Made by a program: the position numbers and the translations under genes. From Eggerthellaceae bacterium (GTDB lineage: Bacteria > Actinomycetota > Coriobacteriia > Coriobacteriales > Eggerthellaceae), in the NCBI GenBank assembly GCA_017459925.1, contig JAFUCC010000026.1, forward strand, positions 1-64,000: DNA of 64,000 nucleotides, read 5' to 3'. The notes beneath the pieces are model-generated. The model did not search any database. It was not told where the DNA came from and worked only from the letters and a program-made list of their open reading frames with translations. The first letter of the stretch is position 1. Every line of letters begins with the position of its first letter. Of this stretch, positions 41,307-61,588 are shown piece after piece.

Positions 41307-41464
41307 GTTGAACGTTACCCCAGTGACGGCTGCCGGTTGAACATCATCCCAGGGAAGATGTTCAATTTGAGAAGTGATCCCACGCAAAGACAAGGCCTCA
41401 GCAAATTGAACATCTTCCCTGGGGTGATGTTCAACCGGCAGCCGTCACTGGGGTAACGTTCAAC
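41307..41464. repeat. Family A palindromic element, copy 5 (62-nt arms)
   Basis: 41307-41368 and 41403-41464 are inverted repeats matching at 61 of 62 positions around a 34-nt spacer. Each arm contains two unit types, one with TTGAACGTTACCCC and one with TTGAACATC. The spacer shares GCAAAGA and GGCCTCAG with copy 6. It ends 12 nt from the hemW stop. Confidence 0.92.
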
Positions 41465-59805: not shown

Positions 59806-60402
59806 CTACTCACCTCCCAATGGGGCGCTGCCGGCGCGCTTGCCGGGCTCGACTTCCAGGATCTCGACCTCCGACTTCCCGTCGGTTTCCTCGAGGAACA
59901 GCCTCACGTTCTCGTTGGCCGCAGATGGCACGTTCTTGCCGACGTAATCGGCGCGGATGGGAAGCTGCCTATGGCCGCGGTCGATGAGCACGGCAAGCTG
60001 GACCGTCTCGGGCCGGCCGATGTCCATGAGCGCGTCGAGCGCAGCCCGGATGGTACGGCCCGTGTACAGGACGTCGTCGACGAGGATGACATCGCGCCCG
60101 TCGATGTCGAACATGATGTCGGTTGAGAGCACTTCGGGCGAAAGGTAGCTTGCGAAATCGTCGCGGTAGAAGCTGATGTCGAGACGCCCAAGCGGCACGC
60201 GAACGCCTTCGATCTGCTCGATTCTCTCGACGAGCATCTTCGCCAGCAAATCACCGCGCGTGACGATACCGACAACGGCTAAGTTGCCAGCCCCCTTGTT
60301 CTTCTCCAGGATTTCGTGGGCGATGCGCGTGAGCGACCGCTCGATGCCGTCGCCGTCCATCACGATGGACTTCACGTGTGCCCCATGTGCGTTATCTGCC
60401 AT
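59806..60402 (-). CDS. pyrR: Bifunctional pyr operon regulator/uracil phosphoribosyltransferase PyrR
   Basis: 198 residues. PRPP loop [18 protein letters not shown] and the [15 protein letters not shown] segment. Binds UMP and the pyr leader RNA, and has weak UPRTase activity. First gene of pyrR-pyrB-pyrC; a matching binding hairpin lies about 70 nt upstream. GGAGG precedes the ATG. Confidence 0.95.
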
Positions 60403-60548: not shown

Positions 60549-61121
60549 ATGAAGAAGATTGCATCCCTCATATCCACACTCGCGCTGGCGATTCTCCTTG
60601 CGTTCTCGCTTTCCGCTTGCATTGGAAATACCGGGGCGCCTTCGTCATCGGGCGCAGCGGCATCTTCGTCGGCAAGCGCGTCTGCATCGTCTTCGTATTC
60701 CACCCCTGCGGCAATCGGCGATGACTCGTATGCGGAAAACCACCTGGTAAGCAAGGCGTATTCCCCACCTGATATCACCGTAACCAAGAACGGCGAATAC
60801 ACCGACAAGGACTCGGTGGCGCTTTACATCCACACCTACGGCACCGTGCCTTCGAACTACGTCTCGAAGACGAAAGCCCGCAATGCCGGATGGGTGAACA
60901 CGAAGGGAAACCTATGGGACGTGCTGCCCGGCAAGAGCATTGGCGGAGGCGGCTTCTACAACGATGACGGCATGATGCCCGACGCGCCAGGTCGCGAATG
61001 GTTCGAATGCGACATCGACTACGACGGCGGTTTCCGAAATGCAAAGCGCATCGTGTATTCGAACGACGGGCTTATTTACTACACCGACGATCACTACAAC
61101 ACGTTCCAGCGACTGTATTAG
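60549..61121 (+). CDS. Barnase-type ribonuclease lipoprotein
   Basis: 190 residues. Lipoprotein signal with lipobox LSAC (Cys24), a Ser/Ala linker, then a barnase domain (about 75-190): ALYIHTYGTVPSNYVSK, KGNLWDVLPGKSIGG and DHYNTFQRLY. Glu153, Arg167 and His182 have exactly the spacing of barnase Glu73, Arg87 and His102; Lys107 and Arg163 match Lys27 and Arg83. Positions equal to Arg59 and Glu60 (guanine loop and barstar contact) are Asp139 and Asp140. Predicted to be a surface-anchored RNase, made safe inside the cell by the barstar gene 42 nt downstream. Confidence 0.92.
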   Translation: MKKIASLISTLALAILLAFSLSACIGNTGAPSSSGAAASSSASASASSSYSTPAAIGDDSYAENHLVSKAYSPPDITVTKNGEYTDKDSVALYIHTYGTVPSNYVSKTKARNAGWVNTKGNLWDVLPGKSIGGGGFYNDDGMMPDAPGREWFECDIDYDGGFRNAKRIVYSNDGLIYYTDDHYNTFQRLY

Positions 61122-61163
61122 CCCAATGGGGATACTCCCCTTTGGGCTACCCGGGAGGATACG

Positions 61164-61451
61164 ATGAACGACATACGCGAAGTTCGCATCATCGGCGCAC
61201 GCTGCACCTCGCAAGAGGATTTGCACGCATTCGTGGCGAAGAAGCTCGGCTTTCCCGATTACTATGGCGCGAACCTCGCCGCCTTGGCCGATTGCCTCTC
61301 AGAAATGGGCGAACCTGCACGCATCACATTCGCCATCGGCGAGCACGACGTGGAACCGGGCATGCAGGCATACCTGCTGCGTTTCGTCCAAGTATGCGCA
61401 AGAGAGGCCCTCGTGAACGAGAACCTCTCTTTGATAATCGAGCACCTATAA
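61164..61451 (+). CDS. Barstar family RNase inhibitor
   Basis: 95 residues. The binding helix reads PDYYGANLAALADCL; Asp43 equals barstar Asp39, the main hot spot, but the Asp35 and Trp38 equivalents are both Ala (39 and 42). Cytoplasmic (no signal), as an immunity protein should be. The ATG follows GGGAGG. With the preceding gene it forms a toxin-immunity pair. Confidence 0.92.
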   Translation: MNDIREVRIIGARCTSQEDLHAFVAKKLGFPDYYGANLAALADCLSEMGEPARITFAIGEHDVEPGMQAYLLRFVQVCAREALVNENLSLIIEHL

Positions 61452-61482: not shown

Positions 61483-61588
61483 TGGTTGAACATCACCCCA
61501 GGGAAGATGTTCAAATTGAAAGAACGTTCCTGCGCAAAGATAGGGCCTCAGTAAATTTGAACATCTTCCCTGGGGTGATGTTCAACCA
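61483..61588. repeat. Family A palindromic element, copy 6
   Basis: Perfect 35-nt inverted repeat (61483-61517 against 61554-61588) with a 36-nt spacer whose GCGCAAAGA and GGGCCTCAG parts are shared with copy 5. It fills the convergent gap between barstar and the oxidoreductase operon, so it probably terminates both. Confidence 0.9.

What the first reader, a model, noticed from the sequence alone, without database searches (positions are those of the whole stretch)
60549..61451. Lipid-anchored barnase with cognate barstar and linked interface substitutions
Seen: a lipobox-bearing barnase domain whose Lys107, Glu153, Arg163, Arg167 and His182 sit at exactly the spacings of barnase Lys27, Glu73, Arg83, Arg87 and His102, followed 42 nt later by barstar. 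The residues equal to barnase Arg59 and Glu60 are Asp-Asp, and the barstar residue equal to Asp35, which contacts Arg59, is Ala, while the Asp39 equivalent is kept. This looks like a compensated change at the inhibitor interface, with possibly altered guanine recognition. Membrane anchoring of a barnase is unusual and suggests contact-dependent or surface RNA degradation (inference).
Basis: partly seen in the sequence, partly recalled or inferred. Interest (0 to 1): 0.75.

Follow-up and report, generated by a model that had tools for sequence, protein, structure and literature searches.

The report
Barnase–barstar pair with reversed salt bridge
A gut bacterium carries a probably membrane-tethered RNA-cutting enzyme and its matching inhibitor in which a key electrical contact between the two proteins looks reversed, apparently nature's version of a classic laboratory protein-engineering swap and widespread in one bacterial class.

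Summary
60549-61121 is a barnase-family RNase behind a lipobox; 61164-61451 is its barstar. The five named barnase residues and Asp-Asp at 59-60 are confirmed by an ungapped alignment; a predicted structure agrees.

Barstar Glu76, ionic partner of barnase Arg59, is Arg here (window R80). In 101 distinct Coriobacteriia pairs, acidic 59 goes with Arg76 in 74 of 74 and non-acidic 59 in 0 of 27. Of 8549 inter-protein column pairs, 59-76 covaries most and 60-35 second. All five inferred changes at 59 share a branch with a change at 76, though most rows descend from one old switch. It is the natural counterpart of the engineered R59E/E76R swap (known here only through a review).

Membrane tethering looks common in this class, not unusual, and selection is purifying. 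A surface RNase harvesting RNA, with a cytoplasmic inhibitor, fits better than contact-dependent killing. Altered guanine recognition through D60 is possible and untested. Verdict: real, a new variant of a known kind. Binding and activity were not measured.

The parts
60549..61121 (+). Lipobox-bearing barnase-family ribonuclease, 190 aa (P0001)
   Evidence: PF00545 E 7e-17; 35 distinct PDB sequences matched, named barnase, binase, ribonuclease or fusions of these
60609..60620 (+). Lipobox L-S-A-C (residues 21-24), after MKK and a hydrophobic stretch
   Evidence: read from the sequence; own genome has LspA and Lgt
60621..60809 (+). Tether between lipobox and catalytic domain, its first half Ser/Ala-rich
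   Evidence: read from the sequence
60810..61115 (+). Barnase catalytic domain (residues 88-189 = barnase 8-109)
   Evidence: ungapped phmmer alignment; Foldseek rmsd 0.6-0.8 A in the ten best rows
60963..60968 (+). Asp139-Asp140 = barnase positions 59 and 60 (Arg, Glu in barnase), guanine-binding loop
   Evidence: loop named in PMC11408511 passage
61005..61007 (+). Glu153 = catalytic Glu73
   Evidence: E in 99 of 101 Coriobacteriia pairs
61092..61094 (+). His182 = catalytic His102
   Evidence: H in 101 of 101
61164..61451 (+). Barstar-family inhibitor, 95 aa (P0002), no signal peptide seen by eye
   Evidence: PF01337 E 6.2e-14; PDB barstars
61278..61280 (+). Ala39 = barstar Asp35 position
61290..61292 (+). 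Asp43 = barstar Asp39 (kept)
   Evidence: D in 101 of 101
61401..61403 (+). Arg80 = barstar Glu76 position; proposed partner of barnase Asp59
   Evidence: profile alignment to PDB barstar; covariation
59806..60402 (-). pyrR, divergent neighbour (pyrB and pyrC follow); context, not part of the system
   Evidence: NCBIfam; pyrR found beside the pair in all 11 other same-genus genomes that have it

Best explanation
A genuine barnase-barstar pair in a Coriobacteriia lineage whose inhibitor interface has been electrically inverted. The RNase is exported, lipid-anchored on the outer face of the membrane by its lipobox cysteine (inferred), and probably digests RNA near the cell surface for nucleotide or phosphate supply (inferred). 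Barstar stays in the cytoplasm and blocks enzyme that has not left the cell (inferred from the known pair). It docks as barstar does (inferred from covariation): Asp39 still fills the active site against Arg83, Arg87 and His102, while the salt bridge barnase Arg59 - barstar Glu76 is replaced by barnase Asp59 - barstar Arg76, and Asp35 is lost where position 60 has become Asp.
For: Family and catalytic residues. 59-76 is the top covarying inter-protein column pair of 8549 (Z 9.9) and 60-35 the second (Z 7.2); both are known contacts of barnase-barstar (PMC4207830 passages). Acidic 59 with Arg76: 74 of 74; non-acidic 59 with Arg76: 0 of 27. Five of five inferred changes at 59 share a branch with a change at 76; 0 of 20000 random placements did so on either tree. 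I59-I76 in 4 pairs, N59-Q76 in 1, and an apparent reversion Y59-D76 in L112. dN/dS 0.02-0.25 in ten locus pairs (several dS above 1, so rough). A same-genus pair with a longer spacer was predicted with pTM 0.79.
Against: No binding or activity data. The main switch is one old event: the independent-pairs test found only 2 pairs on starred branches (both agreeing in most pairings, median p 0.5). One of the five co-changes depends on where the Arg59 clade is placed. The window pair itself gave pTM 0.53, so its docking was not confidently predicted, and no coordinates could be inspected. In the Bacillus pair E76A weakens binding only about tenfold (PMC4148194 passage) and has little effect on dissociation in simulation (PMC11408511 passage), so the 59-76 bridge is a modest contributor there. 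Outside Coriobacteriia two Tyr59 rows, L016 and L043, have Arg76, and in the RNase Sa-like rows Arg59 shows no clear acidic partner. RNA harvesting is inferred only.
Confidence: 0.8

Rival explanations
1. The 59-76 and 60-35 links are phylogenetic by-products: one old switch inherited by a big clade, with no physical coupling.
For: Most of the acidic-59 pairs sit in one clade; only 2 independent pairs on starred branches, median p 0.5.
Against: The same two column pairs rank first and second in three data sets and are the known contacts; further joint changes inside the clade: L112 (Y-D), L149/L152/L195 (I-I), L189 (N-Q).
Confidence: 0.12
2. An interbacterial weapon: the tethered barnase is a toxin for neighbours, barstar is immunity, and the charge swap makes lineages mutually non-immune.
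For: Barnase-barstar modules occur in polymorphic toxin systems (PMC3482391 passages); Arg59-type and Asp59-type pairs both occur in one bacterial family, f2.
Against: Pfam finds only the RNase domain on the 190-aa window protein; purifying selection in ten locus pairs; same position beside pyrR throughout the genus; no match in phages and only 4 of 72,556 plasmid records, three of them chromosome-sized.
Confidence: 0.12
3. The driver is a change of base specificity: Asp60 in place of Glu60 alters guanine binding, and loss of barstar Asp35 merely follows.
For: D60 goes with non-Asp35 in 52 of 52 Coriobacteriia pairs; D35 binds the loop backbone at 59/60.
Against: 48 of 101 rows keep Glu60, and 14 of these, all with acidic 59 and 8 of them with an inserted loop, have lost Asp35 without D60; cleavage was not measured; Asp keeps the carboxylate.
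Confidence: 0.25

Closest known systems
Barnase-barstar of Bacillus amyloliquefaciens (PF00545 / PF01337)
   Same: Fold, catalytic residues, barstar Asp39, an RNase with a dedicated inhibitor
   Different: Asp59/Arg76 instead of Arg59/Glu76, Asp60/Ala35 instead of Glu60/Asp35, Ala38 instead of Trp38; acidic RNase domain (net -4 against +1 over barnase 8-109); lipobox and tether instead of a Sec signal plus propeptide (PMC8294519 passage)
Engineered barnase R59E with barstar E76R (Jucovic & Hartley 1996; original not held, described in PMC10932960)
   Same: Acidic residue at 59 and Arg at 76 as a compensated pair
   Different: Natural and widespread in a class; mostly Asp (66) rather than Glu (8) at 59, with further changes at 60 and 35; the review's table calls the engineered compensation partial
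Simple barnase-barstar gene pairs noted in the polymorphic toxin survey (PMC3482391, passages)
   Same: Toxin gene followed directly by the barstar gene
   Different: The passages read do not mention an interface inversion; no delivery domain found here
Balifase and YrdF of Bacillus licheniformis (PMC5021464, passages)
   Same: RNase and barstar orthologue in one operon; its phosphate-starvation control suggests nutrient supply
   Different: That gene order is called unique there, but adjacency is nearly general in the loci held here (197 of 200)

Membership tests
Barnase family (microbial RNase N1/T1, PF00545) | Profile match over the curated cut-off | tested here: met
   62.2 bits against 24
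Barnase family (microbial RNase N1/T1, PF00545) | Glu73, Arg83, Arg87, His102 and Lys27 | tested here: met
   All present at the right spacing
Barnase family (microbial RNase N1/T1, PF00545) | Barnase fold | tested here: met
   AlphaFold model, Foldseek E about 1e-15, rmsd 0.6-0.8 A in the ten best rows
Barnase family (microbial RNase N1/T1, PF00545) | Guanyl-preferring RNase activity | not testable with these tools
   No assay; position 60 is Asp instead of Glu
Barstar family (PF01337) | Profile match and Asp39 on the inhibitory helix | tested here: met
   52.2 bits against 23.4; D43 = Asp39
Barstar family (PF01337) | Tight binding to the cognate RNase | not testable with these tools
   Covariation supports it; docking prediction pTM 0.53 for the window pair and 0.79 for relative L177
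Bacterial lipoprotein | N-terminal signal with lipobox cysteine; Lgt and LspA in the genome | tested here: met
   LSAC at 21-24; LspA E 5.6e-34, Lgt E 6.7e-76; lipidation itself not shown
Polymorphic toxin system | Delivery domain or repeats ahead of the toxin domain | tested here: not met
   Signal, tether and RNase in 190 aa; Pfam finds PF00545 alone at E up to 1

The most novel reading that the evidence does not exclude
Coriobacteriia hold a natural, charge-inverted barnase-barstar system that is orthogonal to the Bacillus-type system, so inhibitors of one type do not protect against enzymes of the other; the Asp-Asp loop also shifts base preference away from strict guanine, making co-resident gut lineages mutually unprotected.
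Probability: 0.25. Interest if true: 0.8.

Novelty: new variant of a known kind. Interest (0 to 1): 0.6.

Why it matters
Barnase-barstar is a textbook model of tight protein binding, and acidic 59 with Arg 76 is a classic engineered compensation. Finding it widespread in nature, with possible intermediates (Asp59 that keeps Asp35), alternatives (I-I, N-Q) and an apparent reversion (Y-D), gives a ready-made series for testing how a very tight interface can change both partners without losing protection from a lethal enzyme on the way.

Tried and rejected
Viral contigs: 14 stretches matched a pattern, none encoded a relative by tblastn. Phages: no match. Plasmids: 4 of 72,556 records, three of them of 2.6-4.1 Mb. 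padloc: none for either protein at E 0.01. NCBIfam: nothing over a cut-off for either protein. Rfam hits at 61484-61587 are microRNA families below their gathering scores, lying on a dispersed inverted repeat, and were set aside. A sigma-70-type promoter scan found none where 0.7 is expected by chance. A first mixed alignment of the fused chain with single proteins was dropped because, judging by identities of 9-27%, it had laid nearly all barstars on the wrong half. A first lipobox scan called 38 of 100 'none' because its pattern was too strict; a looser one replaced it, and it too has visible misfires. Barstar Asp35 alone as the compensation was rejected: nine of 66 Asp59 pairs keep Asp35, all with Glu60, and all have Arg76.

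Papers: ten searches. Several lists were capped (for example 15 of 148, 12 of 227), only open-licence papers are held, and passages were read in seven papers (eight with PMC5021464). None of the titles and passages seen describes a natural 59/76 charge swap. One search found no paper holding barnase, Coriobacteri- and ribonuclease together.

Rows left out: L002 (same gene as L001) and L040 from the pair counts from then on; duplicates merged, leaving 175 pairs; the 43 RNase Sa-like rows from the trees and from two of three covariation runs; L155 from the covariation runs; L155, L156, L148, L153, L154, L144, L038, L037 from the 124-row trees (the 101-row tree left out six of these and had no later loci). 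L097's Arg76 was read by eye, because the alignment misplaced it; without it the count is 73 of 73.

Full report
OBSERVATION. The first matches Pfam Ribonuclease (7e-17) and the second Barstar (6.2e-14), both over cut-off. phmmer aligns query 88-189 to barnase 8-109 with no gap, which confirms K107, E153, R163, R167, H182 as barnase 27, 73, 83, 87, 102 and D139-D140 as 59-60. In the barstar, D35 is A39, W38 is A42 and D39 is D43. A profile of 39 barstars (A4) aligned to PDB barstar puts the window's R80 at barstar Glu76. The own genome (3.44 Mb, 224 contigs, 94.8% complete, 8.4% contaminated) has one match to each family.

HOW COMMON IT IS. 75 of 396 Coriobacteriia genomes have PF00545, in 77 places; 27 of 138 in the window's family and 68 of 140 in another family of the order. 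In the window's genus 12 genomes have it and 3 listed ones do not. Of 200 barnase ORFs in the 199 loci then held, 197 have a barstar just downstream; L100, L157 and L199 do not. These 200 include duplicates and loci from Bacillota, archaea, Streptomyces and Proteobacteria. After merging duplicates and leaving out L002 and L040, 175 distinct pairs remained: 101 Coriobacteriia, 31 mostly Bacillota and methanogens, 43 RNase Sa-like.

THE INTERFACE. In the known complex the Arg59 side chain pairs with Glu76, and the backbone of 59 and 60 with Asp35 (PMC4207830, passages; PMC11408511, passages). In the 101 Coriobacteriia pairs, position 59 is D 66, R 14, E 8, Y 7, I 4, S 1, N 1. Acidic 59 goes with Arg76 in 74 of 74 (one, L097, read by eye). 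The other 27 never have Arg76: R59 with E 8, D 4, Q 2; Y59 with D 4, A, I, V; I59 with I 4; N59 with Q 1; S59 with S 1. All eight E59 rows carry a four-residue insertion after position 59. D60 goes with Ala or Ser at 35 in 52 of 52; E60 goes with D35 in 34 of 48, and the 14 others all have acidic 59, eight of them with the insertion. Nine D59 pairs keep D35, all with E60. Outside the class position 35 is Asp in all 74 rows and 59 is never acidic. Two of these, L016 and L043, pair Tyr59 with Arg76, and among RNase Sa-like rows Arg59 shows no clear acidic partner at 76; the alignment of that helix is less sure there.

COVARIATION. Mutual information with average-product correction and sequence weighting ranks 59-76 first (Z 9.9) and 60-35 second (Z 7.2) of 8549 column pairs over 131 rows. 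They are first and second also in Coriobacteriia alone (100 rows, Z 8.7 and 6.5) and over 174 rows with the RNase Sa-like ones (7719 pairs, Z 7.0 and 6.3). A smaller first run of 107 pairs gave the same order. Other high pairs, such as 29-76 and 54-76, are not known contacts and show that linkage by descent is also in the signal.

PHYLOGENY. Trees were built from both domains with the trait columns left out (101 rows; 124 rows, quick; 124 rows, careful). By parsimony, with residues grouped by kind, 59 changes five times and 76 seven times; all five changes at 59 fall on branches where 76 changes. Changes thrown at random on branches by length never matched this in 20000 trials on either tree. 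For 60 and 35, four of ten changes at 60 coincide (1 and 3 of 20000 trials). The caveats are plain. The large acidic clade is one event. One of the five, the return to Arg59 or Tyr59 in a clade of 16, depends on topology: on the 101-row tree that clade lies outside, and changes at 59 number three. The stricter independent-pairs test on starred branches has only two pairs, agreeing in most pairings, and cannot reach significance.

STRUCTURE. The window pair, read as one chain through its natural spacer, folds with pLDDT 88.0 but pTM 0.53, so the docking is not confident. Its barnase half superposes on PDB barnases at 0.6-0.8 A in the ten best rows. A same-genus pair with a longer spacer (L177: D59, D60, S35, R76) gives pLDDT 86.5 and pTM 0.79 with a poorly predicted linker. 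This suggests a defined arrangement of the two domains, but the coordinates could not be inspected, so agreement with the crystal complex is not shown. Its halves match PDB barnase (Z 20.9, 0.9 A over 110) and barstar (Z 12.8, 2.1 A over 89).

CONSERVED CORE AND SELECTION. Barstar Asp39 and barnase Arg83, Arg87, His102 are invariant in 101 of 101; Lys27 is kept in 95 and Glu73 in 99. The two without Glu73 (L154, a deletion; L156, a degraded copy) keep their barstar. dN/dS is 0.02-0.25 for both genes in ten locus pairs; several dS values exceed 1, so the figures are rough, but they point to purifying selection and not an arms race.

LOCATION. A crude scan finds a lipobox-like site in 59 of 100 Coriobacteriia loci, a hydrophobic anchor or signal without it in 34, neither in 3, and too little upstream sequence in 4; in the 31 mostly Bacillota and methanogen loci 14, 15, 1 and 1. 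The scan has visible misfires, so these are estimates. Bacillus barnase instead has a Sec signal and a propeptide (PMC8294519, passages). The own genome has Lgt and LspA. Membrane tethering therefore looks frequent here, not special.

NEIGHBOURHOOD. The pair is divergent from pyrR-pyrB-pyrC and is followed by genes for a 2-oxoacid:ferredoxin oxidoreductase. Within the stretches fetched, pyrR lies beside the pair in all 11 other same-genus genomes that have it and the oxidoreductase gene in 9 of the 11; pyrR is also found beside the pair of G220 (L123, L172), of another genus. Together with starvation-induced RNases in Bacillus (PMC5021464, passages) this favours RNA harvesting, but only as inference.

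HOW IT WORKS. Shown: families, residues, gene order, covariation, purifying selection. Inferred: lipid anchoring, RNA digestion at the surface, inhibition in the cytoplasm, the D59-R76 contact. In the Bacillus pair D35A or R59A raises the off-rate about a hundredfold, while E76A has little kinetic effect in simulation (PMC11408511, passages) and about a tenfold effect on affinity (PMC4148194, passage). A barstar with Ala at 35 in complex is in the PDB and is the window barstar's best hit (1b2u, residue read from its letters). Here the loss of Asp35 goes with D60, which suggests relief of repulsion with the acidic loop (inference). Both proteins are acidic (net -4 and -6), unlike the barnase 8-109 stretch (+1), so long-range steering should be weaker (inference).

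NOVELTY. The engineered pair R59E/E76R restores the complex, in part according to the same review's table (Jucovic & Hartley 1996; original not held; account in PMC10932960, passages). None of the titles listed by ten library searches, several of them capped lists, nor the passages read, reports a natural version. It is a new variant of a known kind.

Noticed in passing
window 61483-61588: Perfect 35-nt inverted repeat, each arm itself a near-palindrome TTGAACATC..CCC.GGG..GATGTTCAA; 74 places in the own genome, several as inverted pairs about 70 bp apart: a dispersed REP- or MITE-like element.
   Followed up: partly
window 41337-41434: A second inverted pair of the same repeat in this window.
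   Followed up: no
L154 (G276) and L156 (G353): Barnase copies that lost Glu73 by deletion or decay while the barstar next to them stays readable.
   Followed up: partly
L145, L148, L150, L151, L194, L196, L197, L198: A subgroup with a four-residue insertion in the guanine-binding loop, Glu59 and Arg76; L194 has Arg at barstar 35.
   Followed up: no
L121 994-3946: Two near-identical barnase-barstar pairs about 2.4 kb apart; one copy lacks its start beside ambiguous bases.
   Followed up: no
L028, L029, L031-L035: Methanosphaera and Methanobrevibacter pairs with Arg59 that have Gln instead of Glu at position 60, again at the guanine-binding residue.
   Followed up: no
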